A stretch of DNA of 64,000 nucleotides from Pardosa pseudoannulata (Eukaryota > Arthropoda > Arachnida > Araneae > Lycosidae). Each line of letters opens with the position of its first letter. Positions within the stretch are counted from its first letter, which is position 1. This document shows positions 17,968 to 48,261 of the stretch, piece after piece. Below the pieces are notes generated by a model. The model worked only from the letters and a program-made list of their open reading frames with translations, did no database searches and was not told the DNA's origin. A program made the position numbers and the translations under genes. The stretch covers positions 83,808,666 through 83,872,665 of the forward strand of contig CM063499.1 in NCBI GenBank assembly GCA_032207245.1, given 5' to 3'.

Positions 17968-19610
<1,643 letters not shown>

Positions 19611-19613
<3 letters not shown>

Positions 19614-24615: not shown

Positions 24616-25089
24616 ACTTACGTACCTACGAGACAACCTACTACTCACACATCTGGAACGAAAAGAACATTTAGAACAGAAAATTTGCATAGATAGCAGG
24701 GTAATGACCTCAAAAATCACGTGCACCAATAGCTTCCATATTCCCCTATCAAAGTTAGGGCATATACAGCAACCTAGTCATCGCCCAAGTTTGCCACACA
24801 AAATCACCAAGTTTGGCAAGAAAAAACCCGGCGAAAGAAAAAGAATCATGAATTAATTTTGTTGTTAAACAGTAATCGCCATACACATGTTGAAAGAAAG
24901 CCTTGCAACATAGATAAGAAACTTTCTTTGCTCTAAATGTCGTTTCAGCAATCCTGTGCATAATAAGAATTATTGCTTTCCTGGTAGACATCAAGGACCT
25001 TTGAATCTTTTTCACTTGTATTTTTTTTTTAATCTGTAGTCATAAGTTCTTATTGATCGTCAATATTAAGCATTTATCAATATTAAAGT

Positions 25090-25255
25090 GTCAAACGATG
25101 GCTGATTGGTTAGAGAAATGGCCTTTGGTTACAGAGTTCATGGTTTCGAATCGCACAGTGGTATGGATGTTCGTAGCTGTTCAGAATCGGCTTTAAGTTG
25201 TAGGTTCGAGTCTCATTAGCCTTAGTGTTGCTAAAAGTAGACCGTAGCACTCCAA
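25090..25255 (+). mobile_element. tRNA-derived SINE with target-site duplication
   Basis: Head with GATTGGTTAGAG and GGTTTCGAATCGC, body, and GTAGACCGTAGCACTCC. Flanked by ATCAATATTAAAGT at 25,076-25,089 and 25,256-25,269. The same insertion is present at 33,631-33,795. Confidence 0.85.
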
Positions 25256-26034
25256 ATCAATATTAAAGTTTATTTATGATTTATTCATAGTTTTGTTTGT
25301 TAACTGTTTATTCATTCACAAAATGTTATACTGTCTTTATTTTGTGTTTTAAGCTGTTCAAGAATTTTTAAAATAAACGTTTTAGCTATTAGTGCAGAGG
25401 TGCATTTTTTTTACTCTTTTTAACAATTGAATCATAACAAGAAATAATTACAGTTTACCATTTACATAAAGATAACTGTTCAGGGAAACCAATTTTAATG
25501 CATCACATCCTCATTGTTTGTTGAAAAATGATCATACCTGTTGTTTTGAGTGGTGTCACTACTTGCAAGTTAAAGAGCATTTTCTTAGGAGTACATTTCT
25601 AATACTGAACATCGTATTAATAATTGTGAAATTTTTACTTGTATTGCTTTTTTTTTTTTTTAATGTTAAATACTTATTTTCTTAAATCTGCAATAATGTG
25701 ATGTGTATTTAATCTTGGAAAATAAACTTTTATTCAGGAAATTTGTTCTAATTCCTGTATGTTTAAGCATTTTGAACCAAAACATTTTTATTCTCTTACA
25801 ATTTCATAATTATTTTTGAAATCATATTTTCTGTGAGAGTTTTAGTGCTAAGTAAAACTTCCCTATTGTTACATCTCTGGCACAGAATTTTGTCTGATAG
25901 TTACCCTTTACGCTACGAAATGGATTGAAGTTGCTGCGTGAAGCAGGGGTGACTCTAAACTGAAATTTCTAAAATATATGTGGATCTATATTAAAATATG
26001 TAAAATATAGAGTCTTTTTCATAGATGTTTAAAA

Positions 26035-26210
26035 GCCGAACAATGGCCAAATGGTAGAGTGCTGCTCTTCGGAACTGGAGTTTGCGGGTTCGAATCCCAT
26101 AATGGGCATGGATGTTTGTAGCCTTTCGAAATCAGCTTTAAGCTGTAGGTCCCATTCTCATTAGCCCTTGTGTCCAAAACAGTAGACCGTAGTGCTCAAA
26201 ACCAAACCAC
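26035..26210 (+). mobile_element. tRNA-derived SINE with target-site duplication
   Basis: Head GCCGAACAATGGCCAAATGG, B box GGGTTCGAATCCC, full body and an AACCAAACC tail. Flanked by AGATGTTTAAAA (26,023-26,034 and 26,211-26,222). Shared with 34,600-34,775; empty at about 42,270. Confidence 0.9.
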
Positions 26211-27790
26211 AGATGTTTAAAAATAATTTTCTGAAAAATCGTTTTTAAAATAAAAATATTTTTTACATTATCTTGCTCTTGAAATATATATAAAAAAAAT
26301 TTTTGTGGACAATAAAAAACATTTTTTTGTCTGATTTTTTTTTTTTTTTCCTGTTGCAGTAAGAAATTTTTATTCTGCCAAGAATAAGAATAAAATGTTT
26401 CTGTCAGTTGATAAGTGCAATATGTGTTTAAATCAAATAGCTGTGTGATGCAACAAAGCTAACACATCTACAATTGGTGTGATTCTATTAATAATAGTAT
26501 ACTGAAGCCATAAAGAGTTTTCACGTTTTCTAATTTTATTTTTAAACAATACAAGACAAAAATGTATGCAGGACAGTACCTTTTCTCATTTCATTATTGG
26601 CCCTAGTAAGGGATTTCAACTGGGATTTATATCAAACTCTTTAATGTCTCTCGAAAACACTACTTTTTCTCAGCCTAGTGTGTGTTGTCGCAGTTCATGA
26701 AAACTCCGACAACGTATGTTGTTTACAGTGGGGGTATGCGACATTTTAATTTGTTTTTGTTTATAGATTAGCATAAATAGAAATTTTTTTTATTTTTCTG
26801 ACATTAAAGTGTCAAATACTAAATACTCTATTGTGCCACTCTGTAGAAAATGGTAATGTATATTTACTCTTTTTCCTATTACGTTTTATGTTTGTGTAAA
26901 TTTTTGGGCGTAAGTTATTTGTGAAGCTTATGCTATTCTTAAAATTCACATTCAATCAAAAGTGCACAAGCCATACTGTTTGTGTATTATTTTATGCTAA
27001 TATAATTTTATAAAATTTCTTTATTCATTTCTATAAATTATTTCATAAAGGAACTTAAAGCAATATATCCATTATTGTGTTAATTAAAAATAATTCAGTA
27101 ACAAATCTCTGAATGTAAACATGAAATAATTGGTATTTTGCATAAAAAAGTTGAGTAATCCTTTAGGAAAGATAATAAATGGAGATTTGTACAATGGTGA
27201 TCTTTATAATCATACATGATGGGGGTTTTACTGCATAATCTAAGTGTTTTGATCCAAGAATGCTCTTTAATATAGTATTTTCAACAACATTATTGTAATA
27301 CTTTTCAGATATTTTTTATTTTACCAGATTAAAATAACATTCATACATAACTTCCAATTAAATGAAATATAGGTACTTTCTCTAATTTTTCTTTTAAACA
27401 TTACTTCTATTTCTATATATAAAATGTAATACTGCAACAACAAATGTGTATGTGTGCATAAATATAAGTATGTTTAATGTGTTGTCAGAGTCTAAAAACA
27501 AAACAATTGTGGTTCGAATTTATAGAGCACTTATATATTTCTAGTGAAAGAAGATAATCTGAAAAATATGAAAAATTATTTTACATATCTTTAGGTTTTG
27601 ATTCCTCGTATTTCTGCTCCCAATAAATCAGAAATATTTCATAAACGAAAGCATTCATATGCTGTAAATTTTTTTAAAATGGGGATCTTTTGAACCATAC
27701 ATGATGGTGGTTTTAATACATAATCTAAGTGTTTCCTTTCAAGAATGATTTTTCATATATTTCCAGCTAGTATATTAAAATATTTTTTAC

Positions 27791-28169
27791 AGTACACCCC
27801 CTCTTAAGATTTGCGTTTATATTCACACAAAAATATAATTAATAAACGCAGAACTGAATTACAATTACTGTTTATATTTAAAACAAACAAAAACCATTTT
27901 TTTTTTTTTTACATATAACAAATTTTCAAAACACTGAAGAAATCCTGAAAAAACTTAAGACCTAGAACTAAACAAAGTATAAGCAAGCATACAAATAAAA
28001 CAACAATTATATCAGTAAGAAATGCAATGGTAAATACTAAACACTTATTATAAATGTAAACATTTTAACTTCTAGACGTTTATAAGAATACTTAATATAT
28101 AACTGGATTAAAAATAGATCGCAACACAACATAAAGTAAATTGAAGTAAAAAAAACAGTTAACAGTCAC
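27791..28169 (-). mobile_element. 3' untranslated tail and polypurine tract of Ty3/Gypsy copy 1
   Basis: Minus strand after the RNase H stop: non-coding sequence ending in the polypurine tract AAGAGGGGG and TGTACT, the first six bases of the LTR seen intact at 32,064-32,293. After those six bases flank DNA begins, so the 3' LTR is absent. 27,797-28,775 is nearly identical to 32,294-33,275. Confidence 0.75.
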
Positions 28170-28898
28170 TCATCCTGGGAACAGTCTTGACAAGGCATCC
28201 GCGTGCGGCATTTTTGATCCAGGACATTGTTTTATAGTAATATTAAATCGTTGTAGAGCAAACACCCATCTCTGCAATCATGATGATTGAGGAGCAAATT
28301 TTGTCAAAAATGGGAGAGGGTTGTGATCAGTAAAAATTTGAATTTCCGATCCAAACACTAAGGATTTGAACTTTTATTAACTCCATATTATGGCAAATGC
28401 TTCACGTTCAACTGTAGACCAGGATTATTGAGTTTTACTTAGTTTTTGACTCGCAAAAGCAATGGGGCATAATTTTCTATCTGTCGTCTGTGATAATCAA
28501 GCTCCAATCCCAATTGAAGATGCATCACAATAAATCACAAAAGGCTTGCACATGTCTGGAGTGTGAAGAGTAGGAGCACGTAACAAGTGTGATTTCAATT
28601 TTTCGAACGCAATATCATGAGTATCCCACCACGGTAGCACCTCGGGGATCTATTTCTTCGTTAATTCTGTTAACGGAAAGGCAACTTCAGCAAAGTTTGG
28701 AATGTAGTCTCTGTAACAATAACACAGTCCAATAACACTACGTAGCTCTTTCTTTGTTTTAGGCCTTGACAAACGAGAAATTGATTCCAATTTATTCGGG
28801 TCAGCTCGGTATTTACCTGAACCGATTATGTGTCCCAGATAAGCACTTTCCGATTTAGCAAATGCACACTTTTAAAGATTGACAGGGAATCGAAGCTC
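28170..28898 (-). pseudogene. Ty3/Gypsy RNase H domain, broken (copy 1)
   Basis: Continues the RT frame after a stop at 28,899. Shows the thumb/connection motif AYLGHIIGSGKYRADPNK, the RNase H motifs FVIYCDASSIGIGA, PIAFASQKLSKTQ, STVEREAFAI and FTDHNPLPFL, and the closing motif ADALSRLFPG before the final stop at 28,170. At least six in-frame stops. In an active element it degrades the RNA strand of the RNA-DNA hybrid. Because it ends pol and is followed by the PPT, RNase H and not integrase is the last domain. Confidence 0.85.
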
Positions 28899-29660
28899 TT
28901 AAAGTTTATCTAACACAAGATTAAGGTGTTTCAAATGAGTAGAAATGTCACTGGAAAATATGGCAATGTCGTCGATATATGCCCGACAAAAGTCTTTAAA
29001 TGGTGATAGAGCCTTGTTCATCTCTCTCTGAAAAGTAGCAGCAGCGTTTTTTAATCCAAACGGCATAACTTTAAAACGATATTGGGCTCTGTGCGCCTTA
29101 AAAGATGTAAGATATCTCGAATCTTCATGCATAGGGATGGACCAATATCCTTTCAGGAGATCCCGAGTCGTTATTACGTTTGCGCGTCCTATTGAATATA
29201 TCAATTCTGTAGCATCCTGCATGGGAAAATCATCAGTTTTCGAAACTTGATTCAATGCTTGATAGTCGACACACATTCGCATTGTTCCGTCCTTTTTATT
29301 TACACACACTACTGGGTGAGCAATATCTGCTGAACTTTCTTCAATAAGACCGAGTTCTAAGAGCTCTTCTATTTGCGTGTCTACCTGTGATTTTAAAGAT
29401 TCAGGTATTCTGTACACATATGGCTTTTTCCTTTCTTTGCTATCTTCTAATTTTATTCTATGTGGACCAACTTTGGCTATTTTCACTTTCCCGGTGAATA
29501 TCATCTGATGACGAAGTAGCAAGTCCACAATTTGTTTCTGTACTTCCTCAGATTGATGTTGCAAATCTAATTTATGCATAATTTCACTAAGCTTGTTTTC
29601 GATTTTACCTCTAGGAGAAGCACATATTTCTCCAAAGTCTTCATCGTCTTCAAATATCAT
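28899..29660 (-). CDS. Ty3/Gypsy reverse transcriptase domain (copy 1)
   Basis: 253 codons open. Order: acidic start (MIFEDDEDFGEI), approach region with LLELGLIEESSADIAHPVV, RT box 2 (VNKKDGTMRMCVDYQALN), box 3-4 with LLKGYWSIPM, FKVMPFGLKNAAATFQREM, and the catalytic YIDDIAIF. All three catalytic Asp positions look present except that box 3 reads TTRDLLKGYW; the Asp is kept. The ATG overlaps the upstream integrase stop as ATGA. The domain copies element RNA into DNA. It is intact as a domain, but the element around it has frameshifts and stops and has lost Gag N-terminus and 5' LTR. Confidence 0.85.
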   Translation of the reverse strand: MIFEDDEDFGEICASPRGKIENKLSEIMHKLDLQHQSEEVQKQIVDLLLRHQMIFTGKVKIAKVGPHRIKLEDSKERKKPYVYRIPESLKSQVDTQIEELLELGLIEESSADIAHPVVCVNKKDGTMRMCVDYQALNQVSKTDDFPMQDATELIYSIGRANVITTRDLLKGYWSIPMHEDSRYLTSFKAHRAQYRFKVMPFGLKNAAATFQREMNKALSPFKDFCRAYIDDIAIFSSDISTHLKHLNLVLDKL

Positions 29661-31108
29661 GCCAACCGCATTAATTCTTGGATAATATTTTCACTTGGAT
29701 TCACATGACAATGTGGGATCTTTCCGTCACAGAGCTTCACTTTATAAGAATGGGCTGAACAGTGTTCTATAATTTCACCAGGTCCAGTCCATCTTGCATA
29801 TAACTTGTTCAACGAATCTGGAATCAACAAATAAACTTGTTCGCCAATTTTAAATTCCTTCGGCACAGCTCTACGGTTAAAGTAGTTAGTGTAGGCTTGC
29901 TGTTTCTCGGAAGCAATAAGAGATGCTTGTGCGGCGGCTCTTTCAAAATTTATTTTTTGTTCTTGAAGGTAATCAACTACTGAGTTTTCCATATTCAATG
30001 GGATGGCAATTTCTCCACACCAACTTGACTTCAGTACGCTCAAGGGTCCACACGCTTCACGTCCATACATTAATTTAAATGGCGAGACACCTGTCGTACA
30101 GTTAGGCACTTCTCTGTAAGCAAAGAGCATATAAGGAATATATTTATCCTAGTTGCTCGGATCTGTCCGAATTATGTGATGTAGTGAATTTTTCAGAACT
30201 TGGCTGTACAGCTCAACAAGTCCATTACTTGCAGCATATCCAGATGTAGAAAATCTTGGAGAACATCCCAACCTGTTGATGAATTCTTGGGTCAATTTTG
30301 AGGTAAAATTGGAACCATTATCACTCGCGATAATATTGGGAATACCAGTCCGCATAAAAATATTCAGTAATGAGTCACAAGTTGCTCTAGCAGTTAAAGA
30401 ACGTAGCGGAATAGCTTCCGGCCATCGCGAATGTTGGTCTTCGAGACATAACACATATTTGTGTTTTCTAGCTGACGGTGGATCTATGGGACCAATAATA
30501 TCCACATTCATAACTTCAAATGCAATTCTGGACGAAGAACAGGAAATCGGAATTTTATCTATCATCTTCTCCGGACTTCTCAGCTGACATTCTTTACACG
30601 ATTTGCAAAATTCCTTAATATCACTTTTCATGTTCGGCCAAAAGAAACTATATCTTATTATTTCACGAGTCTTTTTTAATCCCCTGTGACTTCCAAAAAC
30701 AGATTCGTGAGCCAATTTAAGAACTTGTTGCCTTTTACTTTCAGGTAAAACTAGCTGATTTACCCTTTCATTTAATATTTTATCTTTGTGAAATATGAGT
30801 CCATCCATCATAAAATAATTTCCTTTACCAAGGGCTAACTCCTTTCTCACCGAATCCAAAGTTTCGCACTTTGATTGATCCTCTTTTAACAAAATAGTTT
30901 TGCTTTTCTTATCTAATAGCTCGCTCTTCTTGTGCAACGATTCCTCCTCTTCATCCCCGGCGCAAAACAGTGAGTCATCAAACATAAATTCTTCCAACGG
31001 CACCCCTTCGATCCCCGTTTCTTTAGGCGGAGGCGGGTGGGGGTCATCTATGTGGTATTCGTTATCAGTGCATTTCCCAAGAAGCTCGAAAACAGCTGGG
31101 GGGGGGGG
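29657..31108 (-). pseudogene. Ty3/Gypsy integrase located upstream of RT (copy 1)
   Basis: 30,149-31,108 holds an acidic linker, the HHCC zinc domain (HESVFGSHRG ... CKSCKEC) and the rve core with DIIGPIDPP, ASDNGSNF and SNGLVE, i.e. the D,D,E set. A single TAG at 30,149-30,151 (where Trp would fit, before DKYIPYMLFAYREVPN) splits it from the C-terminal part 29,657-30,130 (LMYGREACGPL, GEQVYLLIP, YARWTGPGEI). At its 5' end it joins the protease frame through a run of 11 G/C (31,097-31,107), a likely 1-base frameshift. It precedes RT-RNaseH, whereas most Ty3/Gypsy elements carry integrase last. Confidence 0.85.
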
Positions 31109-32015
31109 AGTATGCATTGTCCCTGAACCCTATCTGTAATGCCGGCCACCACCTCGATTGGCCTGGAAAATCCCTCGTTCCCGCTTTTCACTGACATCCG
31201 AAAATTAAAAAGAGAGGCTTCTACCTTTTCTCCAAAGACACTTTTCAAAATGATTTTTCCTTTTCCAGTCTTCGCGTTCGACACAACATTCGAATTCAAG
31301 ACTGGAATTTGTGCACCTGAGTCTATTAATGCTTTTATTTCTTCATTGTCCACCATAATGTTTATGTATTTTAAAGAACTGATATTTATTTGCGATTCAT
31401 TACCTCTAAGTATGTCTGACTGGATTTCGGCCGTTAACACGTCGTCCTTTTTGGTTTTTTCAGTTCGTTGTTTGCTGTATCTCTCCGGGCAATCTCTTGC
31501 AAAATGTGGTAACCCACATATATAACATTTGGTTATTTTTCTATTTGAAATTTCTTCTTTATAGAGGGTTTTATTCTTGCCTTCCCGTGGAACATACGTT
31601 CGTTCTAGAACGTTTGTCGATTCTTCCTTTTTATCATTGCCGTTCCGTTTAAATGCAAAGCTATCTCGGCAAAGTTCTTTTGTTTTCTTGTGAATGCTAG
31701 GTCGCACATTCTCATAATCATCTAATTTTCCTGCTATTTCACTGGGAGTTTTCAATTTGGACCAAACGTCAATAAAATGCTCTTTAATATCCAGTGGGAC
31801 TCTTCGCCTTATCTGGTCGGTTATAATTAAGTCAGTTAAACCTTCGAAAGTTGGTACTTCTTGTCCTTGAACCCATTGTTCGAAATAATTTTTTAGTTCA
31901 TAAGCGAAATCGCACCAAGTGATTTCTAGTCTTTTTTGATGTTTCATGGATTTTTGTCTAAATTTTTCTGGGCTCAGTTTAAATCTTTTCACAAGCAGAT
32001 TTTTTATGTAGTCAA
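31098..32015 (-). pseudogene. Ty3/Gypsy Gag (C-terminal part) and protease (copy 1)
   Basis: Minus strand: half of the SCAN-like capsid (IKNLLVKRFKLSPEKFRQK, ELKNYFEQWVQG, DLIITDQIRRRVP), a zinc knuckle CYICGLPHFARDCP (one residue shorter than the usual CX2CX4HX4C) and an aspartic protease active site ALIDSGAQIPVL. The open frame extends to 32,109, but from about 32,012 upstream it is not Gag: 52 bp match 41,102-41,153, and then LTR begins. The N-terminal half of Gag, the leader and a 5' LTR are therefore missing. The frame ends in the poly-G/C run shared with the integrase start. Confidence 0.85.
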
Positions 32016-32063: not shown

Positions 32064-32293
32064 TGTCGTGGCTGGTTCGTAAGAGTGCAAAATCTTTTAA
32101 ACAAAACAATAACGAAACTTTATTTAACGAATGAGCTGCCCTACGCGGCAGATGCGTTCTTACTCGACGCTCTCTCTACACAGACTCTCCGTCCCTTAAC
32201 TTACATCGCGCTGCTGCAGGCAACGCCATCTATTTACAATATTTACATTACAATATTAGCATTTTAAAATAAAATTAAAATTTGAAGAGTACA
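32064..32293 (-). mobile_element. LTR (230 bp) closing Ty3/Gypsy copy 2
   Basis: Minus strand from TGTACTCTTC to CCACGACA, directly after the polypurine tract, so it is the 3' LTR of copy 2. Contains AATAAA (about 32,119-32,124 on the plus strand as TTTATT). It is followed by 52 bp of genomic-type sequence and then by the truncated Gag of copy 1. Confidence 0.7.
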
Positions 32294-33275
32294 CCCCCTC
32301 TTAAGATTTGCATTTATATTCACACAAAAAAATAATGCAGAACTGAATTACAATTACTGTTTATATTTAAAACAAACAAAAACCATTTTTTTTTTTTTTT
32401 ACATATAACAAATTTTCAAAACACTGAAGAAATCCTAAAAAAACTTAAGACCTAGAACTAAACATAGTATAAGCAAGCATACAAATAAAACAACAATTAT
32501 ATCAGTAAGAAATGCAATGGTAAATACTAAACACTTATTATAAATGTAAACATTTTAACTTCTAGACGTTTATAAGAATACTTAATATATAACTGGATTA
32601 AAAATAGATCGCAACACAACATAAAGTAAATTGAAGTAAAAAAAAACAGTTAACAGTCACTCATCCTGGGAACAGTCTTGACAAGGCATCCGCGTGCGGC
32701 ATTTTTGATCCAGGACATTGTTTTATAGTAATATTAAATCGTTGTAGAGCAAACACCCATCTCTGCAACCATGATGATTGAGGAGCACATTTTGTCAAAA
32801 ATGGGAGAGGGTTGTGATCAGTAAAAATTTGAATTTCCGATCCAAACACTAAGGATTTGAACTTTTATTAACTCCATATTATAGTAAATGCTTCACGTTC
32901 AACTGTAGACCAGGATTATTGAGTTTTACTTAGTTTTTGACTCGCAAAAGCAATGGGGCATAATTTTCTATCTGTCGTCTGTGATAATCAAGCTCCAATC
33001 CCAATTGACGATGCATCACAATAAATCACAAAAGGCTTGCACATGTCTGGAGTGTGAAGAGTAGGAGCACGTAACAAGTGTGATTTCAATTTTTCGAACG
33101 CAATATCATGAGTATCCCACCACGGTAGCACCTCGGGGATCTATTTCTTCGTTAATTCTGTTAACGGAAAGGCAACTTCAGCAAAGTTTGGAATGTAGTC
33201 TCTGTAACAATAACACAGTCCAATAACACTACGTAGCTCTTTCTTTGTTTTAGGCCTTGACAAACGAGAAATTGT
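32294..33275 (-). pseudogene. 3' end of a second Ty3/Gypsy copy (RNase H, tail, PPT)
   Basis: Almost base-for-base the same as 27,797-28,775, with a handful of substitutions. 32,661-32,849 is open and encodes FTDHNPLPFL to the ADALSRLFPG end. Upstream parts of the domain hold stops. It starts abruptly at ~33,275 inside RNase H/connection, next to zinc-finger debris. Confidence 0.8.
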
Positions 33276-33414
33276 GTAAATAAATGTTCATCGTTGTTCC
33301 CAGACTGAGGAGAAAGCATATGCTTGTATTGTATGTATGAAATCTTTTTACAAAAATTGAACTTTAATGTTCATCTTTGTTCCCATACTCTGGAGAAATC
33401 ATGTATTTTCTATA
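33276..33414 (+). pseudogene. Zinc-finger array remnant
   Basis: The plus strand still reads EEKAYACIVCMKSF followed by a stop, and another linker-like TCTGGAGAAATCATG. At DNA level it matches the finger consensus (GTTCATCTTCGTTCCCA, GGGGAGAAACCATATGCTTG) with many changes. It is the debris of a second array, followed by the same flank unit that occurs at 24.8 kb. Confidence 0.75.
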
Positions 33415-33630
33415 GAGAAAGAATCATGAATTACTTTTGTGTTTAAAGAGTAATCGCCATACACATGTTGAAAGAAAGCCTTGCAACATAGATAAGCATA
33501 CATAGCAGTACTGTGCATAATCAGAAATATTGCATTCCTGGTAGATATTAAGGACCTTTGAATAATTTTGACTCGTGTATTTTTTTTCATCTGTAGTCAT
33601 AAATTCTTAATGATGGTCAATATTAAAGTG

Positions 33631-33795
33631 TCGAACGATGGCTGTTTGTTTAGGGTGCAGGCCTTCGGTAATGGAGTTCGTGGGTTCGAATTCCACAGAA
33701 GCATGGATGTTCGTAGCCATTTGGAATCGGCTTTTAGCTGTAGGTCCCGGTCTCATTAGCCCTCTTGTTGCAAAAAGTAGACCGTAGCACTCCAA
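33631..33795 (+). mobile_element. tRNA-derived SINE (same insertion as 25,090-25,255)
   Basis: Same flanks (ATTAAAGT). Head GTCGAACGATGGCTG, B box GGGTTCGAATTCC, full body. Confidence 0.85.
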
Positions 33796-34599
33796 ATCAA
33801 AATTAAAGTTTATCTATGATTTATTCATAGTTTTGTTTGTTAACTGTTTATTCATTCACAAATTGTTGTGCTGCTTTGTGTAATTATACTGCCTGTTTTT
33901 TGTGTTTTAAGCTGTTCAAGAATTTTTAAAATAAACGTTTTAGCTATTAGTGCAGAGGTGCATTTTTTTTTTTACTCTTTTTAACAATTGAATCATAACA
34001 AGAAATAATTACAGTTTACCAATTACATAAAGACAACTGTTCAGGGAGACCAATTTTAATGCATCACATCCTCATTGTTTCTTAAAAAATCATTGTACCT
34101 GTTGTTTTGAGTGGTCTCACTACTTGCAAGTTAAAGAGCATTTTCTCATTAGTACATTTCTAATGCTGAACGTCGTATTGATAATTGTGAAATCATTTGC
34201 TTGTAATGTATTTTTTTTTTTAGGTTAAATATTTATTTTCTTAATTCTGCAATAATGTCATGTTTATTTAAACTTGGAAAATAAACTTTTATTCAGGAAA
34301 ATTGCTCCCAATTTCTGTATGTTTAAGCATTTTGAACCAAAACTTTTTTATTCTCACACAATTTCATAATTATTTTAGAAATCTTATTTTCTATGAGAGT
34401 TTTCCTGCGAAGTTAAACTGCCCTATTGTTACATCTCTGGCAAAGAATTTTGTCTGACGGGTAGTTACCCTTTATGCTACTAAATGGATTGAAGTTGCTC
34501 CATGAAGCAGGGGTGATTCTAAACTGAAATTTATAAAAGTTTATGTGGGTCTATATTAAAAATTGTAAAATATAGAGTCTTTTTCACAGATGTTTAAAA

Positions 34600-34775
34600 G
34601 CTGAACGATGTACGAAAGGTAGGGCGCTACTCTTCGGAACCGGAGTTTCCAGGTTCAAATCCCGCTACGGGCATGGATGTTTCTAGCCTTTTGGAATCGG
34701 CTTTAAGCTGTAGGTCCCGGTCTCATTAGCCCTTGTGTTCAAAACAGTAGACCGTAGTGCCCTAAACCACACCAT
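34600..34775 (+). mobile_element. tRNA-derived SINE (same insertion as 26,035-26,210)
   Basis: Target duplication AGATGTTTAAAA at 34,588-34,599 and 34,776-34,787. Head with GGTTCAAATCCCG and full body. Confidence 0.9.
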
Positions 34776-36919
34776 AGATGTTTAAAAATAATTTTTTGAA
34801 AAATCTTTTTTAAAATAATTTTTTTTTTTACATTATTTTGCATTTATTACATTTTTTTACATTATTATTAAATAAAGTATATATAAAAAAATGTTGTAGG
34901 CAATAAAAAACAGTTTGTGTCTGACCTTTTTTTTTCCAGTCAGAAATTTTCATTCTGCCAAGAATAAGAATAAAATGTTTCTGTCAGTTGATAAGTGCGA
35001 TATGTGTTTAAAGCAAATAGCTGTGTGATGCAGCAAAGCTAAGACATCTAGAATTTGTGTGATTCTAGTAATAATAGTATAGTGAAGCCATAAAGAGGAA
35101 TTTTCACGTTTTCTAATTTTATTTTTAAACAATAGAAGACAAAAAAGTATGCAGAACAGTACCTTTTTTCATTTCATTAGGAGCCCTAGTTAGGGATTTC
35201 TACTGTTATTTATATTGAACCCTTTAATGTCTCTCGAAAACACTACTTTTCCTCAGCCTAGTATGTTGTTTACATGGGAGTATGCGACTTTTTAATTTGT
35301 TTCTGTTCAAAGATTCGCATAAATAGAAAGTTTTTTTTTATTTGTCTGACATTAAAGTGTCATATACTGAATATTCTATTGCGCCACACTGTACAAATAC
35401 AACAAGGTATTGTAATAAAAAGATAATTTTGAGCACTCTAAAGATCCCAATATACGTAAAACATGGACTAATGTTGTCTAACTTATAAGAAATTAAACCC
35501 CAAATTATCATAAAAATTATCTTTTTGGATTTGTGATGACCATTTTTCTATAATTAAACCTTTGCTTTTTTTTAATACTACGTTTTAAAGTGCTGTTTTT
35601 AGCTTAAAAATGTTCCTCATTTTAGAGTATTTTCAGAAAGTTTAGTTACTGTGTAATGAGTTTATGAAGAAGGATATAAAAAAATACGTGTTCTCAAGGT
35701 ATTTTAATATTTTCTTGTGATATACCTACTTTCTTGAATATAGAGGTTCACACTGGGATATCTTTCAATTGGATGCTAATTAGAAAAAATGTATAAATGC
35801 ATTTTTTTAAATAATCTACTGATATTACTTTAAAATTGTATATTTTAATCCATAAACTATAGAAATTTTTTATTTAACATTCATATTAAGCAATAAAATT
35901 GTATTAGTATTTTATATATAAATCAAAAGTAGTATAATTAAGTATAAAAAGTACAAAGAAAAATCTGAACAATACATACATTTGAAAAAGTAAGCGATTT
36001 TTTTTACTAAATAGTACACTGAATTTTATATTTATGATGAAATTACAAACACACAATATCAATTTCATATTTCAGTGCAACAAATAAAATCTCGGTATTT
36101 ATTTTTCTGAAATATATACATCATTATTTTCATATACCATCAAAAACGGGTTCTATTTCCATAAAAAATGCCAATGTATATTTAAACTTTTTCCTATTAC
36201 ATTTCATGTTTATTTAAATTTTTGGGCTCAAGTTATTCGTGAAGCTTATGCTATTCTTAAAATTAACATTCAATCAAAAGTGCACAAACCATACTGTTTA
36301 TGTACTTATCATTTTATGCTAATATATTTTTATAAAATTCCTTTAATCATCTCTATAAATTATTTAATAAAGAACTTTAATGCAATATAGCCATTATTGT
36401 GTTAATTAAAAATAATTGAGATATGAATCTCTGAATGTAAGCATGAAATAATTGGTATTTTGCATAAAAAAGGGGAGTAATCCTTTAGGAAATATAATAA
36501 ATGGGGATTTTTAGAGTGGTGTTCTTTGTAATCATACATTATGGGGGTTTTAATATATAATTTAAGTGTTTTGATCCAAGAATGCTTTTTAATATAATAT
36601 TTCCAACAACATTATCTCAATACTTTTCAGATATTTTTTATTTTACCAGAACAAAATAACATCCATACATAACTTCCAATTAAAAGAAATATAAGTACCT
36701 TCTCTAATTTTTCTTTTAAACATAACTTCTATTTCTATATATAAAACGTAATACTGCAACAACAAATGTGTATGTGTGCATAAATATAAGTATGTTTAAT
36801 GTGTTGTCAGAGTCTAAAAAGAGAACAGCTGTGGTTAGAATTAATAGAACACTTATATATTTGTAGTGATGGAAGATAAACTTAAAAATATGAAAAATTA
36901 TTTTACATATCTTTAGGTT

Positions 36920-37135
36920 TTAACTGTTTATCTACTGCATTATGAAATAATGAAAACGTCTTTATATTGTTTTTTAGCTGTCACATTGATACTTATATAC
37001 AAGTAAAAAATCTTCCCGGTGTGAAATTTAGTTTGTTAGAACTAATTAATGAAAGTGGGACTTAAAAGTACCGTCAGTACATAAATGGTTAAGGTGATTG
37101 GTACTTATAAGTACCGTCAGTAGATAAAGGGTTAA
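36920..37135. mobile_element. TTAA-flanked piggyBac-type MITE (208 bp)
   Basis: TTAA at 36,920-36,923 and 37,132-37,135. Ends CTGTTTATCTACTG and, reversed, CCCTTTATCTACTG. Two internal copies of GTACCGTCAGTA near the right end. The copy-1 flank unit has the unfilled site at about 27,598 (TTGA). In dup2 only the right part survives (52,797-52,976). Confidence 0.8.
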
Positions 37136-37493
37136 TTCCTCGTATTTCCGCTCTCAATAAATCAGAATTATTTCCAAAAACAAAAGCATTCATATGCCGT
37201 GATTTTTTTTAAAATGGGGTTTTTTGAACCATACATGATGGTGGTTTTAATACATAATCTAAGTGTTTCAACTTTCAAGAATGCTTTTTAATATATTTCC
37301 AGCTACAATATTAAAATATTTTTCAAATACTTTTTATTTTACCAGATCAAAATAATGTCCATACAAAACTTAAATTAAAAGAAGTATAAATACTTTTTCT
37401 AATTTTTTATTTAAAAATTACTGCCATCTCTATATAAAATGTGTTACTGCAACAGTAAATGTGTATATCTGTATAAATAGATAGGTTTGACGT

Positions 37494-37863
37494 TGTGGCA
37501 GATTGTCACAAGAGAGGTTCGGTCATTCTGAGGAACCAGGGAATGTTTTTCCCATAAAAAAAGCAAGAGTTCCAGACCCAGAGGGGTTTCTTATATTTAT
37601 GTCTCTGCATACATGTGTGTGGCATGCCGGCTATCATTCAGGAGTCCAGTCTGCTGACCACTCACTTGCTCTCAGCCATTTCTCTCCCCCCCCCTTGTTT
37701 TTGAGATTGATCTTTCAAGAACCAGGCAGTAAGTTGTCGGGGGCTTGAGGGTAGAGAAGGTTCTTTCTCCCAAATGAGGTTGTTTTATATCATGTGTATA
37801 TTGTAGATAGTCGAGATAATAAAGTCTAGGACATTAAGTGATTGTTTTTACTAAGCCCCCACA
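37494..37863 (+). mobile_element. LTR-like insertion (solo LTR?), dup1
   Basis: Begins TGTGGCAG and ends CCCCCACA (inverted TGTGG/CCACA), with AATAAA near its 3' end. It interrupts the flank repeat, whose uninterrupted form is seen at 16,670 and 27,475. ACGT precedes it at 37,490 and recurs at 37,889 and 37,901, so the right edge may lie ~25-35 bp further. A short frame inside has no recognisable content. Confidence 0.6.
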
Positions 37864-38283
37864 AACACAGAGGTGTATGTATGTTGCAACGTTACTACGT
37901 GTTGTCTGTCTTTACAAACTGAATAGCTATATAGTATTAAAAAATCATTTATATATTTGTACATTTATATTTTTGTGATGTACATTAAAATAAATTGAAA
38001 AATATGAAAAAAAAATTTATATATCTTTTCGTTTTGATATTTTGTATTTTTCCTCCCAAAAATTGGAATTATTTCCCAAAATGAAAACAATTGCTATGCT
38101 GTGAATTTTCACGACACTATCGGACTGTTCTTTAGAATCCAGATAAGAGTTATCATAAACAAATGTACACATATATATATTATCGAGATTGATAAAATTA
38201 TCTGAAAGGTCTAAGTAGATATAAATTTTGAAATTGAGAAAAATTTACAATACGAGCAAAATGCAATTGTGAGATAGAAAGTG

Positions 38284-38604
38284 CCAGGGCCGTAGCCAGA
38301 AATAATGTTTGGAGGGGGGACCAAGGAGAAAGACATCTTTGTTTGTGAATGATACTTCAATTGATGAAAGGGAAAGCACTGTATTTCCGGAGCACAGTGC
38401 TGTATTTCCGGCCAGCAGCTTAGGAAAACTTTTATGGTCTGAGCAGTTTTTATTTAAGAGAATAAGTGTATGCTCATGAACAGCTAGGCAGATAGCACAC
38501 ACACACAAACGTGGGACATTGTCTATCTACATAATGGTCTTTTAACATTTTTTTTTGGGGGGGGACCAGTCTCCCAAATCCCTCCCCTTGCCTATGGCCT
38601 TGGT
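38284..38604. mobile_element. Non-autonomous DNA transposon with GGCC inverted ends, dup1
   Basis: Left end CCAGGGCCGTAGCCAG, right end CCTATGGCCTTGG, with G-rich and C-rich arms that pair. Flanking AAGTG on both sides (38,279-38,283; 38,605-38,609). The uninterrupted flank is at about 17,003 (GAAAGTGTCACC). No transposase. Confidence 0.65.
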
Positions 38605-38609
38605 AAGTG

Positions 38610-41212
38610 CTTGCTAATAAAATGTGAAAAGTGAAACTTCATGAACTATGACGTCACAATCAGTAACAGAGCTTTTGGAAGTCACATAGTTTTCTCTTAA
38701 CTTAAAAATTAATTTTAAAAGTGACAAACCCATTTTTTTCTTACATTTTTGAAAACATTTTTTGAATTATCAAAAAATAATAAGTTGTTTCTGTCACCCA
38801 CATGTGCAAATTCCTCATTTTTGAGTATATATATTTGTAAGTATGAATCACAAACATGCTTAGGGTCTTAATGCCCATTTTTGTTTTTGCATAGTTTTCA
38901 GATTACCAAATTTTTAAAATGGCATTAGCTGGAGCTGAACTATTCTTTATTGGAAGAGAAATAAAACTTTGAAACATTTTTTAAAAATCAAAATTAATAT
39001 AATTAAATTTACACGTGTATTAATTGTTGAAATAAACAAGTATTATTAACTCCCAAAACTTTTTATATCAATGTTACTTATTGGGATATTTTATTTTAAT
39101 TTCTCAAGCTATGATAAATACCAAACTGTAAAATAATCTTTTTGGACTAATACATAAAACATGTACTGTCCTAAAATTTGTGGTGCCAGGTGCATACTGA
39201 ACCCTTACCCCCTACCCGTAAATATGCCACTGTTCTTATTTATTGCAGAGAGAATAGTTATTGACAAACAATAAGGATAGAGCCGGTTTTTATTACACCA
39301 TATTATCCAGTGCAATACAAAGGGGATAAAAAATTAATCAGATTTCTCTCCTAGTCAGTTTTGGCTAGTGACAATTGAAATAAAAGTGTATGGAAATTCT
39401 GATTTAATGTAAACTTCTGCAAAATATCTATTACAGGCAAATTTTGTGAAGTTTATTATTTGAAAAAAAAAGATGTATTTACAAATACATCAAACAAAAG
39501 AAAATAAAAACAAAGTGTTTTCTTACAAATTGATTGATAAAAAACTAAATTTTCTATTAGAGTCACAATTCTATGAGTAGGTTAATACTCATAGAATCTA
39601 CTTTAATAAAACACAATTTAATTAGAAGATAAGTGGTAAAATATATTTTAAAGTTGAATCTCATAAGCATATCATCAGCAAGGATTTAAAAATAATAAAC
39701 TGAGAAATTGTTTGAATGTCTTTTTGGAGAGAGAATAATTTTGATTGTAATTCAATGATAATTTAATTTTGTAAGATACATCACACAAAGAAAGTAAAAT
39801 GTGTATATTTTAATAGTATAACAAGAACATGCATTTATTGATGCTTGAAAGTAATGAAAGAAAAGCAAAACTTGGTTCTATAAATTGATGGATTAAAAAT
39901 ATTTGTAAAGAGGGTTAATATTTTTTAAATTATTAAAATATCTAGGAATTCACATAAAAAAATAGTTGTAATTACTGTGTAAACGTAAGTAATGATATAT
40001 TCCAAAGTTGAATTATATTTGTAGTATTAAATATTATACCCTATTTTATTGATAAATGTGTAAAATTTTATGTTCAAATCAATGTTATGCATGTTTAGTT
40101 TTGATATCTTGAATAGTGATGTAGCTGAACACTTTTGAAAGTAATTATGCTATTTAAAACAATTTTCTTATTTTAAATTAAAAATTAAATGTAAACCAAA
40201 TTGCATTGCTATTTTTTATTTTGGTGTATTTAAAAATATTTTTACAATTCGACATCTTTTTTTTTTTTTTTTTTCTTATAAACATGTGTTATATAATTCT
40301 ATTACTAAACATTCATGTATATAATCGTAATTTTAGCAACTAAAAGTCACAGACGTATTTCATATGGATAATCTTAAAATTTTATAAGTCTTCAATGAAA
40401 AGAAAAATAAAATATGGTTATCTATAACTACTGTTTCCAGAGTGATCAAAATCTGAAAATGCAGGTGTTAAAATCTCTTTTCCCCTGTTAATTCAGTGTG
40501 AGCTGTCTTCATTACCCCTCTCCCCTCTGTCTCTCTATATGAGTGCATGTTTGTATGTGTATATATATATATCAGGCCTGTTCAGACAATTAATTTAAAC
40601 GTGTATGGAAGTCGTAAACTTTCCACACCCAATCCATCTTTCTTCCTATCCGTTTTACATTTACTTTGCTTACAGGAGTTATAGTATTTTGGTTCTTTTT
40701 TTTTTTTAAATATATTTTTTACTGTTATTTTTTATTATATATACATATATATAGTGTGTTTGGGAATAAAAATTTTCAGTTTATTTAGACATTCATCTTT
40801 TATTAGAGATCTCTTGGCAAGATTTTTTACATTTACTTATATAATGCTGTGAGAGTGCATGTAACCTATAATATAATATTTCTATAAAAGATTTTTTTAT
40901 GGTACTTTGACTTTATACTCTTATGACACACTCTACTCAACAATTTAACTAATCAGAGTGTGAAGATTAATGACATAATGATGCAAAGATGTGAAACCTT
41001 TTAATGCAAAAAAGTAATAAGATTAAGTTAAGAGAATGTTAATTTGATGTTCTTAAAATTCTCTAATGGTACTATAATTAAAAAAAAAAGAAACACATTT
41101 TGTCAAATTTTATAAATTTGTGGGTAGTTTACAGAAAATAATTTTAAAGTATTGGTAAAATTAAGTATAGTAATTATTATAGTAGTACAGTATTACATAT
41201 ATCAGGCTTGCA
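38610..41212. other. AT-rich DNA of the duplicated segment
   Basis: No gene supported. Contains the 38,630-38,830 block (inverted match at 21.6-21.8 kb), poly-T runs and small AT microsatellites near 40,560 and 40,740. 41,102-41,153 reappears at 32,011-32,062 beside the broken Gag. Confidence 0.55.
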
Positions 41213-42201
41213 ATTGCGTCACTTTTCTCACCTTTAGTCACTTTTTATACAGTTGATCACTTTTTTCATGGTGTATTACAGGGTCCAACAATGTACTGAA
41301 CCGTATTTCGTTCTTAGTGCAAGTGCTACAATTACTCAACACAGCCGAATAGAAACCTTCTGTATTATTCTGCATGTGTGGCTCTCTTAGGTTGGCAGAT
41401 GACCTAGAGGTAAATACATTATTGAATCGTTGGTTGGACAGCTACTGGTTGGAGGGAAAAACTTGGCGAACACAAGAACGTCTTACAAGTATATCACCCC
41501 TTGGCTGTTCAGACGTACCCCTCTTTCCAAGAACCATCACCCTGTAAGGCTATATTGGACCCTGCCTGGATTTCCGGTTGATCTAGTTTCCAGTTCTTTC
41601 TGTTGTTGAAAAAAGAAAATCTGAATTAAAAAAAAAAAATATTTTAATAAAAGACCAAAAACGTGATGCTTTAACCTTATTTTTCTTATTAAAATGTAAT
41701 TAGTTATATGGTTTTCAGAATTTAGTGATTTTAAACAGTCGTAAAGAAGTTCCTGAAATGTATATTTGTACTAAAATGTACATTTATTACATTAAAGTAA
41801 TTTACGTCAAACTACACATTTCTCTTTCTCTTCACAATTTTTGTTTAGATACTCTAATCTAGCTATGTACATATTCCAAAACAACATTAATATATGCAGA
41901 AACTTGTGATTATAAAATTAGTGTATTGTTTGTGTTTAATTCTAATTTATAGATTTTCTAGAATAAAAAGCAATGTTTAGTTGTGTTAAACAAAATTTTT
42001 AACCTTTTGTATTTGACACTAAAATTATGTCTTGCATGAATCATTTGATTTAGAGTTAAAATAAATAGAAAAATCTTAATAATAGCATCTGTAATCAAGA
42101 GGAGAAAAAAAAACTTTTTTTTCTCAATGTATAGTCACTTTTTTTGTATTATTTGTCACTTTTCTCACCTTTTTGAAAGTACCTCAGCAGTTGCAAGCCT
42201 A
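41213..42201. mobile_element. DNA transposon with ~15-bp inverted ends (hAT-like), dup1
   Basis: Left end CAGGCTTGCAATTGC, right end GCAGTTGCAAGCCT(A/G): inverted, 13-14 of 15 matching, with GTCACTTTTCTCACC repeated just inside both ends. CAG-starting short inverted ends suggest hAT, but no clear 8-bp target duplication is visible. Inside, 41,374-41,586 resembles the open frame at 56,734-56,946 but has a stop. Confidence 0.55.
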
Positions 42202-42857
42202 TTCTAAACTGAAATTTCCAAAATATATGTGGGTCTGTTTTAAAAATTGTAAAATATAGTCTTTTTCATAGATATTTAAAAATAATTTTCTGAAAAAACT
42301 TTTTTTTAATAATAAAAGAAAATATTTTTTACATTGTCTTGCTCCTGAAATAAAATATATCGGCCATTCCATGTCAACAGTTACTCAATGACCAAATTTG
42401 AAAACTAGTTCCAGTCACATGTGTTGATCAATTTGATGTCACACCAGTAACATAAAAGATATATAATTTTATTTTAAGAAAAAGCTATTGGGCCTATCAA
42501 CTTGATCTTTTGGATTCACTTTATAAAACATGTTCTCAAGCATATCTAGTAGATGTATTTCATAGTAGATATATTTTTTTTGGATTTCCTCGTTACAAAA
42601 TTGTTCTCAGATGTATAGTTCGACGGTTAAAATTAATAATTAAATATTCTAGGTTGTGTTAATTAATGTAAAAATTGTGACACTGCGTACATGAACCTAT
42701 TTTATAGTTCTCAGAATATTTAATAATTAATTTTATTTTCAAGTACTATTGAAAATATGCCTTTGTTATGCAAGTTTAAATTTGTGAAAGATTTAAATTA
42801 TTTATTTTGATTTCTTTTATATAAAGTCTTACTAAATCCATTAATTTTCTTCTTCAG

Positions 42858-42948
42858 GTCATCGAAGGACCTAAAACTAGAGTAGCGAAACATATGAAAA
42901 GCCAAAGAAGTGGTTCTATCAAAGTGCATGAATATCGTTAAAAATAAA
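42858..42948 (+). other. Candidate terminal coding exon, dup1
   Basis: A pyrimidine-rich acceptor (TTTTCTTCTTCAG) is followed by an open frame starting VIEGPKTRVAKH and ending at TAA (42,939), with AATAAA at 42,943. Relative to dup2 a 2-bp insertion (CATATG for CATG) changes the last residues. The protein is not identified and no upstream exon was found. It sits ~170 bp upstream of the cassette start. Confidence 0.35.
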
Positions 42949-43080
42949 GATGTGATAGAAAAAGAAGATAAAAAATAGAGAATGCATAAACTAGTAATAA
43001 AAGGAAGTTATTATCAGACCTTGATACCGAAAAAAAAAAATCAAACTCGGCTCTCATTGGCTAAAAATTTTCCCTTTGGC

Positions 43081-43088
43081 TATAAATA
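43081..43088 (+). promoter_or_regulatory. TATA box of the cassette, dup1
   Basis: TATAAATA 38 bp upstream of the first cassette ATG (43,119), preceded by CTCATTGGCT (CCAAT-like, ATTGG). Conserved in dup2. Confidence 0.5.
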
Positions 43089-43118
43089 CGCTCTTCCAGA
43101 CATACATTCTACCTCATT

Positions 43119-43628
43119 ATGTTTCCCAAGCAAGTGGTAGACTTTCTTCCAAAAGTGTATCATCCTGGAAATAAGGCGGGATTCAGGAATTTGTTTGCTA
43201 GCTATCCCGTTAAGCTTATTATTCGTATTTGGGAAACCATAGAATTTTTTGCAAACCACAAGAATGGAACTCTAAAATGGAGTTCCTTTCCATAGAATAG
43301 GAAAGGAATCCTTCCAGTCGTGCCGGTGTCTCGAGTCCATACAATGGAGCAACATAGAGAGAAGATTGTTGCTGATAAAGGATTATAATAGGAATTCTCC
43401 TCTGACCCGGCGTGTAGCCATACAGATACTGATATCCAGATCGCCACGACGGTAACCACCACACCACAGGGTACTGCTGACCTACAAGAATTCCGTCATG
43501 GTTCGAGAATAATGTTGACGACCCCAGTAAGGAACAATACTACAACAGTAAGTTCGGGACTACCAGGGAAGTTTGAAGAGAAGGATCACTCAGGAAACCC
43601 CGGGTTCGTGACACCTGAGTATATCTAA
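43119..43628 (+). pseudogene. Unidentified cassette ORF 1, one frame with in-frame stops, dup1
   Basis: From the ATG at 43,119 one frame runs 170 codons to TAA at 43,628 with no frameshift but with three internal stops: TAG at 43,293 and TAA TAG at ~43,389. Segments: 58 residues (MFPKQVVDFLPKVYHPG ...), 29 residues (ILPVVPVSRVHTMEQH ...) and ~77 residues rich in Thr (IATTVTTTPQGTAD ...). All read like protein, and the same stops are in dup2. In the same frame, after more stops, comes LPGGATRRLIAVLGEVPKYN (43,689 on). I do not recognise the family. Possibilities: a decayed gene of an integrated DNA virus or large transposon, or exons with small introns. TATA box 38 bp upstream. Confidence 0.4.
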
Positions 43629-43841
43629 AGGATGTATACCCCTTGAGGTTGCAGACGGCTATCATTAACCTAGGAGGGACACTCCTAGTTACCAGGGGGC
43701 GCCACGAGGAGGCTGATAGCTGTCCTAGGTGAAGTACCGAAGTACAACACCCTGTGGCTCATCCCCAGAGCTGCGCCGTAGTACTGCTGAGGAGAATCAC
43801 TGCCACACCCCCCGATAAAGGATTGTAAATGAAACACGGAC

Positions 43842-44039
43842 GTGAGGACCTTTTTCGTCATAGAAAATAATTTGTTCCTCACAAGTCCCATGTTTACGTT
43901 TGGACTTCTTGGTGTGGCACCCAAGACAGTGCACGTCTTTAAAACAACCACTGTACCCATAGCCCTTTACGTTGCCTCCATGCCCAGGATTAGCGGCATC
44001 TTGGGCTCATTTCGTGCCAAAGAACAAAATTTTTTTTAA
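43842..44039 (+). other. Short frame upstream of cassette ORF 2, dup1
   Basis: Open for 65 codons (MRTFFVIENNLFLTSP ...). In dup2 a 2-bp difference at the A/T run near 59,580 joins this frame to ORF 2, giving 131 codons; in dup1 the frames are separate. Whether it is the true N-terminus of ORF 2 cannot be decided here. An open minus-strand frame in dup2 (59,350-59,625) overlaps it. Confidence 0.3.
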
Positions 44040-44088
44040 ATATTTACTCAAATCTCATAGTACTTACCATATCCCGGAGTCGATAAAA

Positions 44089-44565
44089 TACGTCATGATA
44101 ACGTTAGACAAGACGTTTTTTGGCGTATATGTTTCGACTAAAATACCGAATGGTAGTGTATTATACAGTGAATCGGCAGATAAAAAAATTATCCCTATAA
44201 AATCTTTGGAACCTGTGTTGCCTATAAAATCTGAACCTGTGGAATCTGAACATTTAGAACCCGTGTTGCCTATAAAATCTGAACCTGTGGTGCCTGACAA
44301 TTTATTAATGCCGACAATTGAAGAATTAAAATCAGGGGAATCAATGAACAATTTTGAAATAGTTGACAATTTTGAAGAAAATATCTCTTATAAAGTCATT
44401 AACAATTTTTTGGAACATATGAATTACACAATGTTGATAGACATGAATTTTAATTATCCAAAATGGGGGCGAAGTCTCCTTACAAAAATATACGAAGATC
44501 CACATGTTATAATAGAGAAGAGTAATGACGTTGTATACCCAATAGATTTAAGAATTAAAAAATAA
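44089..44565 (+). CDS. Unidentified cassette ORF 2, dup1
   Basis: From the internal ATG at 44,089 this is 158 codons (the open frame extends upstream to 43,972, giving 197). N-terminal TLDKTFFGVYVSTKIPNG, then a tandem motif EPVLPIKSEPV repeated twice (residues ~43-66), then EELKSGESMNNFEIVDNFEE and a C-terminus ending DLRIKK. No signal peptide or membrane segment is evident. Stop TAA lies in AAAAAATAAAAAT, so a poly(A) signal overlaps the end, and the next ORF begins 58 bp later: compact spacing typical of viral or transposon genomes. Family not recognised. dup2 carries a 1-base insertion and a stop, so dup1 is the better copy. Confidence 0.45.
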   Translation, partial: YVMITLDKTFFGVYVSTKIPNGSVLYSESADKKIIPIKSLEPVLPIKSEPVESEHLEPVLPIKSEPVVPDNLLMPTIEELKSGESMNNFEIVDNFEENISYKVINNFLEHMNYTMLIDMNFNYPKWGRSLLTKIYEDPHVIIEKSNDVVYPIDLRIKK

Positions 44566-44623
44566 AAATATTGGTTTTTTTATTGGTGTTTATTTCATTG
44601 AGTAAACAAGTATACCTTTACAC

Positions 44624-47926: not shown

Positions 47927-47927
47927 A

Positions 47928-48131
47928 TTAGAAAGTTGTGCTGCGGTTAGACATTTCTGCTGTAAGTTTGGTGGCTGGTACTTCCTCGCAAAGTCGCTGT
48001 GTCCGTTTCGATTCTCTCGAGGATTTCCGTGTGCTTTGTTGTGACAAAGATGAGGTGTCTGAGTTAAGACTTAGTTCAAAGGCAGAGTTAGCTGCTTCGG
48101 GTAGCCACAACTCTGTCTGTGGAATGTGCAC
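47928..48131 (-). pseudogene. N-terminal piece of LINE ORF1, copy B
   Basis: Open from the conserved ATG at 48,131; it goes out of frame at the 17-bp deletion near 47,944. Confidence 0.75.
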
Positions 48132-48243
48132 ACTGCTTTCTGCTCTAGCCGTATTTATGTGGCTAAATCCTCACGACGCATCACTCTCAGTAAAGAATCC
48201 CTAATTAAAATCTTTTAAAATTAATCTACAATTTAAATCCTGA

Positions 48244-48261
48244 CATACATACACACACACG

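What the first reader, a model, noticed from the sequence alone, without database searches (positions are those of the whole stretch)
28170..32015. Ty3/Gypsy element with integrase upstream of RT-RNase H
On the minus strand the order is Gag-knuckle, protease (DSGA), integrase (HHCC, D-D-E core, C-terminal domain), RT (YIDD), RNase H (ending ADALSRLFPG), polypurine tract. RNase H directly precedes the PPT, so the order is not a truncation artefact. Ordinary Ty3/Gypsy elements have PR-RT-RH-IN. The IN-before-RT order is known from the Gmr1-like group, first described in deuterostomes. An arachnid member would be a notable extension; internal rearrangement is less likely because all junctions are short and in or near frame.
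Basis: partly seen in the sequence, partly recalled or inferred. Interest (0 to 1): 0.8.

Follow-up and report, generated by a model that had tools for sequence, protein, structure and literature searches.

The report
Integrase-first Gypsy retrotransposon in a spider
A dead copy of a jumping gene whose integrase lies before its reverse transcriptase, the reverse of the usual Gypsy order; the order is real and shared by many relatives in spiders, ticks and a scorpion, so this is an under-described branch of a known kind and not a shuffled relic.

Summary
On the minus strand, 32016 to 28173 reads Gag C-terminus, CCHC knuckle, DSGA protease, integrase, RT (YIDD), RNase H; a polypurine tract follows about 370 bp later. 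The order is ancestral: a 1,463-aa Araneus protein aligns colinearly from residue 178 to 1461. In the same genome 109 of 123 integrase matches have an RT match within 4 kb, and in all 109 the integrase comes first. Two relatives with paired 238-239 bp LTRs and 5-bp target duplications have this order. In-genome controls of usual order read RT first in 8 of 8 and 5 of 5 loci showing both domains. The window copy is dead and incomplete; a 1-kb piece upstream, 97.5% identical, duplicates its 3' end. Trees place it in a clade of spider, tick and scorpion elements, apart from in-genome canonical Gypsy. Gmr1-like is the best name for how it is built; membership of the named Gmr1 clade is unresolved, as no named Gmr1 sequence was available. 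Integrase-first Gypsy was already published from crustaceans and an annelid, so an arachnid member extends a known kind.

The parts
32294..33274 (-). Upstream short piece: end of RT, RNase H (decayed) and polypurine tract of a second copy
   Evidence: blastn to L044 element positions 4045-5272 = 33274-32064, 90.3%; 97.5% repeat of 27774-28783
32064..32294 (-). Complete LTR (TG...CA), contiguous with the upstream piece as its 3' LTR and standing upstream of the main body
   Evidence: 85.5% to the 239-bp LTR of L044
31051..32016 (-). Gag C-terminal capsid part, CCHC knuckle (31489-31527) and aspartic protease (DSGA 31303-31323); Gag N-terminus missing
   Evidence: alignment A1
30152..31129 (-). 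Integrase: H2C2 zinc domain and DDE catalytic core
   Evidence: Pfam H2C2 4.8e-21, rve 6.3e-14
29660..30148 (-). Integrase remainder with C-terminal SH3-like segment, separated from the core by an in-frame stop
   Evidence: weak SH3_Tf2-1, 0.017, below cut-off; colinear with P0259
28902..29690 (-). Reverse transcriptase (YIDD 28956-28979)
   Evidence: RVT_1 1.3e-22; 68% to Araneus P0259
28173..28871 (-). RT tail and RNase H, with several in-frame stops, ending ADALSRLFPG
27797..27805 (-). Polypurine tract AAGAGGGGG after about 370 bp of non-coding sequence
   Evidence: relatives have a G-rich tract at the same place
27789..27796 (-). First bases of the 3' LTR, after which flanking repeat DNA begins
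   Evidence: match to L044 ends at element position 5042 = window 27789; flank paralogy reaches 27787

Best explanation
A decayed copy of a spider LTR retrotransposon of the Ty3/Gypsy superfamily whose polyprotein order is Gag-PR-IN-RT-RH (Gmr1-like architecture). Relatives are about 5.26-5.27 kb with 238-239 bp LTRs and a single open frame of about 1,440 codons for Gag and Pol together (shown). Inferred working by the standard cycle: transcription from the LTR, one polyprotein cut by its protease, reverse transcription primed at the TGG site next to the LTR and at the purine-rich tract, and insertion by the integrase with a 5-bp target duplication (duplication shown, steps inferred). The order is a stable inherited trait of the lineage. 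The window copy lacks primer site, leader, Gag N-terminus and most of the 3' LTR, carries stops and a frame change, and was probably partly duplicated as DNA after it had died (inferred).
For: Colinear Araneus P0259. Of 123 integrase match rows, 109 have an RT row within 4 kb and all 109 are integrase-first on one strand; 14 have none; 39 of 145 RT rows have no integrase row near (both lists are capped and some elements give two rows). 28 of 30 fetched loci show RT downstream of IN, the window's own among them; the other two show no RT in the stretch. LTR pairs differ by 3 of 239 and 2 of 238 bases, with duplications GAAAG and CCTGC, in 2 of 4 copies fetched with flanks. One frame of 1,443-1,445 aa in 3 of 3 copies examined. 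174 of 174 database proteins that match both query domains are integrase-first, against RT-first in both canonical controls; most of these were retrieved with integrase-first queries, so this is no unbiased count; in the search with the integrase alone, 8 of 8 listed proteins with both Pfam domains, all Trichonephila clavipes. All 5 stops of the upstream piece are also in the main body.
Against: The window copy itself lacks a second LTR, a primer site and a target duplication, so its own insertion cannot be shown. The primer tRNA was not identified. L046 has cut LTR ends and gives no duplication; L045 gave no LTR pair in the letters available. The tract in the relatives, ACGT followed by 5-6 G, is G-rich but not a pure purine run. 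Protease and C-terminal IN models score below Pfam cut-offs. Shared stops could also come from a dead copy moved by another's enzymes.
Confidence: 0.95

Rival explanations
1. The order is an artefact of this copy: a canonical element shuffled by recombination, nesting or tandem duplication (the locus does hold a tandem 1-kb piece).
For: Direct repeat 27774-28783 / 32274-33274 and duplicated flanks show that the locus was rearranged.
Against: The repeat lies outside the IN-RT junction; the junction is colinear with Araneus P0259 and with L044 over 4,252 columns at 94.4%; 109 of 109 pairs in the genome agree.
Confidence: 0.01
2. It is a Ty1/Copia element, whose normal order is IN-RT-RH.
For: Same domain order (recalled for Copia; stated in PMC6238403 passage).
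Against: RT matches RVT_1 and best Ty3 among solved structures; the RNase H of the upstream piece matches RT_RNaseH; no Copia-type RT model is listed at E <= 0.1.
Confidence: 0.01
3. Integrase-first order arose separately in the arachnid clade, so it works like Gmr1 but is not of the Gmr1 lineage.
For: The arachnid clade is distinct (RT 99/100 and 97/95, IN 100/99) and separated by long branches from SCAN-bearing integrase-first proteins; in the RT tree the integrase-first rows are not held together against Ty3.
Against: The AU test does not reject one clade (p 0.373); the integrase tree holds all integrase-first rows together, 94/91, not starred; weak SCAN similarity of Gag occurs in both in-genome lineages.
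Confidence: 0.12

Closest known systems
Gmr1 clade / Gmr1-like Ty3/Gypsy elements (cod Gmr1; crustacean GyRex4, Gychoro2, GyMaja1, GyLiva4; annelid LGF3)
   Same: Ty3/Gypsy proteins with integrase upstream of RT (definition as in passages of PMC3587641, PMC8220671, PMC6238403)
   Different: Arachnid host; RT and IN form their own clade, away from SCAN-bearing integrase-first proteins; Gag SCAN similarity only weak. None of the named elements could be put in the trees.
Araneus ventricosus protein P0259 (public name 'Retrovirus-related Pol polyprotein from transposon 17.6')
   Same: Colinear Gag-PR-IN-RT-RH, 68% in RT
   Different: One open frame from Gag to RNase H; the window copy is broken and lacks the Gag N-terminus
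Canonical Gypsy family of the same genome (L005, L006; 1,193 and 1,192 aa)
   Same: Ty3/Gypsy RT, RNase H and H2C2 integrase
   Different: PR-RT-RH-IN order; RT 35-36% identical to the window's
Second integrase-first lineage of the same genome (L069+L054, L070+L056)
   Same: Gag-PR-IN upstream of RT-RH; in L054 the frame ends with RNase H
   Different: Its RT-RH is 36-39% identical to P0259 of the window's clade but 45-47% to SCAN-bearing P0294

Membership tests
Ty3/Gypsy LTR retrotransposon | Ty3-type RT and RNase H | tested here: met
   Best solved relatives are Ty3 RT (4ol8, 1.9e-36; 7q5b, 1.1e-35); RVT_1 on the RT frame, RT_RNaseH on the upstream RNase H piece
Ty3/Gypsy LTR retrotransposon | Two LTRs, TG..CA, with target-site duplication | tested here: met
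   Met in relatives L044 and L047, 2 of 4 fetched with flanks; the window copy keeps one LTR and 8 bp of the other
Ty3/Gypsy LTR retrotransposon | Primer site next to 5' LTR and polypurine tract before 3' LTR | tested here: inconclusive
   TTGGCGCATC after the LTR and ACGTGGGGG(G) before the 3' LTR in L044, L046, L047; tRNA not matched; the window copy lost its primer site but keeps AAGAGGGGG
Gmr1-like (architecture) | Integrase upstream of RT in a Ty3/Gypsy pol | tested here: met
Gmr1 clade (phylogenetic) | RT/IN groups with named Gmr1 elements | tested here: inconclusive
   No named Gmr1 sequence was obtained; RT tree (AU p 0.373 for one integrase-first clade), IN tree (94/91)
Gmr1 clade (phylogenetic) | SCAN-like Gag C-terminal capsid domain (PMC4131045, PMC4592553 passages) | tested here: inconclusive
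Canonical Ty3/Gypsy clades | PR-RT-RH-IN order | tested here: not met
   0 of 109 pairs RT-first; canonical controls RT-first in 8 of 8 and 5 of 5
Ty1/Copia | Copia-type RT with IN-RT order | tested here: not met
   RVT_1 is the only RT model listed at E <= 0.1 for the RT frame

The most novel reading that the evidence does not exclude
Integrase-first Ty3/Gypsy is not a small oddity but a deep, rich branch that expanded in arachnids: this one spider genome holds two distantly related integrase-first lineages beside canonical ones, and the arachnid lineage may have gained the order independently of deuterostome Gmr1.
Probability: 0.12. Interest if true: 0.6.

Novelty: new member of a known kind. 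Interest (0 to 1): 0.33.

Why it matters
Pol domain order is used to tell Gypsy from Copia LTR retrotransposons. Integrase-first Gypsy elements with near-identical LTRs and long open frames, several families of them in this spider and related proteins in ticks and a scorpion, make it testable whether that order arose once before protostomes and deuterostomes split or several times. They are filed in public databases under generic names such as 'transposon 17.6', so order-based annotation of arachnid repeats may misplace them.

Tried and rejected
Shuffled-copy explanation: rejected by colinearity and by relatives. Circular permutation through a tandem array (the locus has RH-PPT-LTR twice, the second LTR cut): rejected, no LTR lies between IN and RT, and single relatives with two LTRs have the same order. 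Copia: rejected. Profile search of Gag against solved structures found no SCAN, only one match at 0.096 to a salivary protein; absence not taken as evidence. The integrase tree had long-branch trouble (P0112, of usual order, fell inside the integrase-first rows) and was replaced, without P0112 and with five more canonical loci; so one row against my reading was dropped there. The RT tree had only three canonical rows and was widened. Search for Gmr1 with arachnid terms: of which I saw listings (one search showed 25 of 1,299); the only paper holding Gmr1 with Ixodes, or with spider and retrotransposon, is PMC3587641. Subscription papers are mostly not held, so this does not prove that none is in print. 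Goodwin and Poulter's description of the group is recalled and was not seen; the cod paper was seen only as a reference-list entry. PMC9415403 matched 'gmr1' only through a DOI. A first script for the repeat failed and was redone; searches failed on stop codons and were redone with corrected coordinates.

Full report
What is there. The window lies in a 2.4-Gb genome that encodes spidroins: 20 matches to the spidroin N-terminal domain, none in the tool's 14 control genomes. On the minus strand the element body runs from 32013 to 27789. Pfam and motif positions confirm Gag knuckle, protease, integrase, RT and RNase H in that order. The best solved relatives of the RT are Ty3.

The order is not an accident of this copy. 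A single 1,463-aa protein of Araneus ventricosus (P0259; Pfam order weak SCAN, CCHC, weak protease, H2C2, rve, RVT_1, RNase H) aligns colinearly: residues 178-492 at 32016-31105, 492-953 at 31102-29699, 957-1461 at 29690-28176. In the spider genome itself the IN query gave 123 rows and the RT query 145, both from capped lists. 109 IN rows have an RT row within 4 kb, all on the same strand and downstream of the integrase, median gap 476 bp; 14 IN rows have none, and 39 RT rows have no IN row near. Some elements give two rows. Of 30 fetched loci, the window's own included, 28 show RT after IN and two show no RT in the stretch. Controls of the ordinary order exist in the same genome: of nine fetched loci of one family (frames up to 1,217 aa), eight show both domains and all eight have RT first; of ten further Gypsy loci, five show RT, RNase H, then IN, and five show no IN downstream (see second lineage).

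Relatives with two LTRs. Fifteen other places carry the integrase at 85% or more over the matched part. Of four fetched with flanks, L044 and L047 have LTRs of 239 and 238 bp, 5,033 and 5,022 bp apart, differing by 3 and 2 bases, with duplications GAAAG and CCTGC read from the flanks, TTGGCGCATC after the 5' LTR and a G-rich tract before the 3' LTR; L046 has cut LTR ends and a 128-bp identical pair; L045 gave no pair in the letters available. Three copies examined have one frame of 1,443-1,445 aa, so Gag and Pol lie in one frame. Low LTR divergence means recent insertion; no rate was available for a date. Six more places with 43-65% IN identity, on at least five separate branches of the RT tree (L063-L068), are integrase-first as well.

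The window locus. It matches positions 804-5042 of the 5,272-bp relative at 94.4%, and separately 4045-5272 at 33274-32064, 90.3%. So a 3'-terminal piece with a complete LTR lies upstream of a body that lacks about 565 bp after the LTR and nearly all of the 3' LTR. The two copies of the overlapping part differ by 14 bases and 20 gap columns in 1,019 columns, and all five stops of the upstream piece are also in the body. Inference: one dead copy was duplicated as DNA, rather than a second retrotransposition; a dead copy moved by another's enzymes is not excluded. The flanks are themselves duplicated (pieces of 24836-27787 with pieces of 33414-37323), so no empty site or target duplication could be read.

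Relatives elsewhere. Searches with the window IN, then with a hit of that search (P0058) and a hit of the next (P0199), gave 114, 341 and 297 proteins, of which the best 114, 120 and 120 were listed. Proteins with both domains came from Trichonephila clavipes, Araneus, Stegodyphus, Parasteatoda, from ticks (Ixodes, Amblyomma, Haemaphysalis, Dermacentor, Rhipicephalus, Ornithodoros) and from the scorpion Centruroides vittatus; Nephila, Larinioides and Argiope gave only pieces with one of the two domains. Of 317 proteins held, 174 matched both query domains and all 174 are IN before RT; 97 matched IN only and 46 RT only. Most were found with integrase-first queries, so the 174 do not measure how common the order is. 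Some unnamed ENA proteins of the same order carry a clear SCAN domain (P0294 3.4e-17, P0299 2.2e-15, P0296 7.7e-9), which published passages link to Gmr1-like Gag; they served as stand-ins for Gmr1.

Trees. RT (47 rows): the spider, tick and scorpion integrase-first rows, with four unnamed rows among them, form one side of a branch (97/95); seven in-genome canonical rows stand apart (88/91, not starred); Ty3 is unresolved; holding all integrase-first rows together costs 2.1 log-likelihood units, AU p 0.373. IN (39 rows): arachnid rows with three unnamed rows 100/99; all integrase-first rows against eight canonical rows 94/91, not starred. The SCAN rows fall in two groups and are not shown as sister to the arachnid rows. 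So one origin of the order is compatible with the data but not shown. A second lineage in the same genome (L053-L057) shows no IN downstream of RNase H in 5 of 5 stretches; in the two cases where the upstream stretch was fetched (L069, L070) integrase lies upstream of RT, and in L054 the frame ends with RNase H. Its RT-RH is 45-47% identical to P0294 against 36-39% to P0259.

How it works. Shown: anatomy, single frame, LTR pairs, target duplication, domain order kept across families. Inferred from established biology of LTR retrotransposons: LTR-driven transcription, proteolytic release of the enzymes, tRNA-primed minus strand, purine-tract-primed plus strand, staggered insertion by the integrase. 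The changed order alters which mature protein sits at the end of the polyprotein; I see no sign that it alters the chemistry of any step.

What is known. [quoted passage not shown] PMC8220671 places annelid LGF3 in Gmr1; PMC8556966 lists Gmr1 among clades present in several phyla; PMC6238403 describes the order. In the listings of my searches I saw no paper on an arachnid Gmr1 element. Verdict: a real member of a known kind that most likely works in the ordinary way, in a host group where I found no description of it although it is common there.

Noticed in passing
window 48931-51545 (-): Gag ORF (50775-51545, 41% to P0259) and a second ORF with CCHC knuckle and DTGA protease motif followed by about 370 aa without a Pfam match; no IN or RT found by tblastn. 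By eye its protease resembles the second integrase-first lineage, as if the rest of Pol had been replaced or lost.
   Followed up: partly
window 4884-5729 (-): Another Gag-only relative, 37% to Araneus P0259, with weak SCAN similarity (0.0011); no IN or RT match next to it.
   Followed up: partly
L053-L057, L069, L070: A second integrase-first Gypsy lineage in the same genome, RT-RH nearer to a SCAN-bearing protein of unnamed origin than to the window's clade.
   Followed up: partly
window 36956-48422 and 52797-64000; also 1-3727: Large tandem duplication (pieces 94.6-97.1% identical); the GC-richer stretch 1-3727 recurs at 44924-48639 and 60469-64000, and by eye its ORFs look like a LINE-type first ORF.
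   Followed up: no
window 24836-27787 and 33414-37323: Diverged duplicated flanks (pieces 83-91% identical) on either side of the element, so the element sits at or near a duplication edge.
   Followed up: no
window 18240-19613 (+): Open array of C2H2-like zinc fingers (457 aa, by eye) with an 84-bp period.
   Followed up: no
P0294, P0296, P0299 (unnamed sources): Integrase-first polyproteins with a clear SCAN domain in Gag; five more carry SCAN by the precomputed Pfam column.
   Followed up: partly
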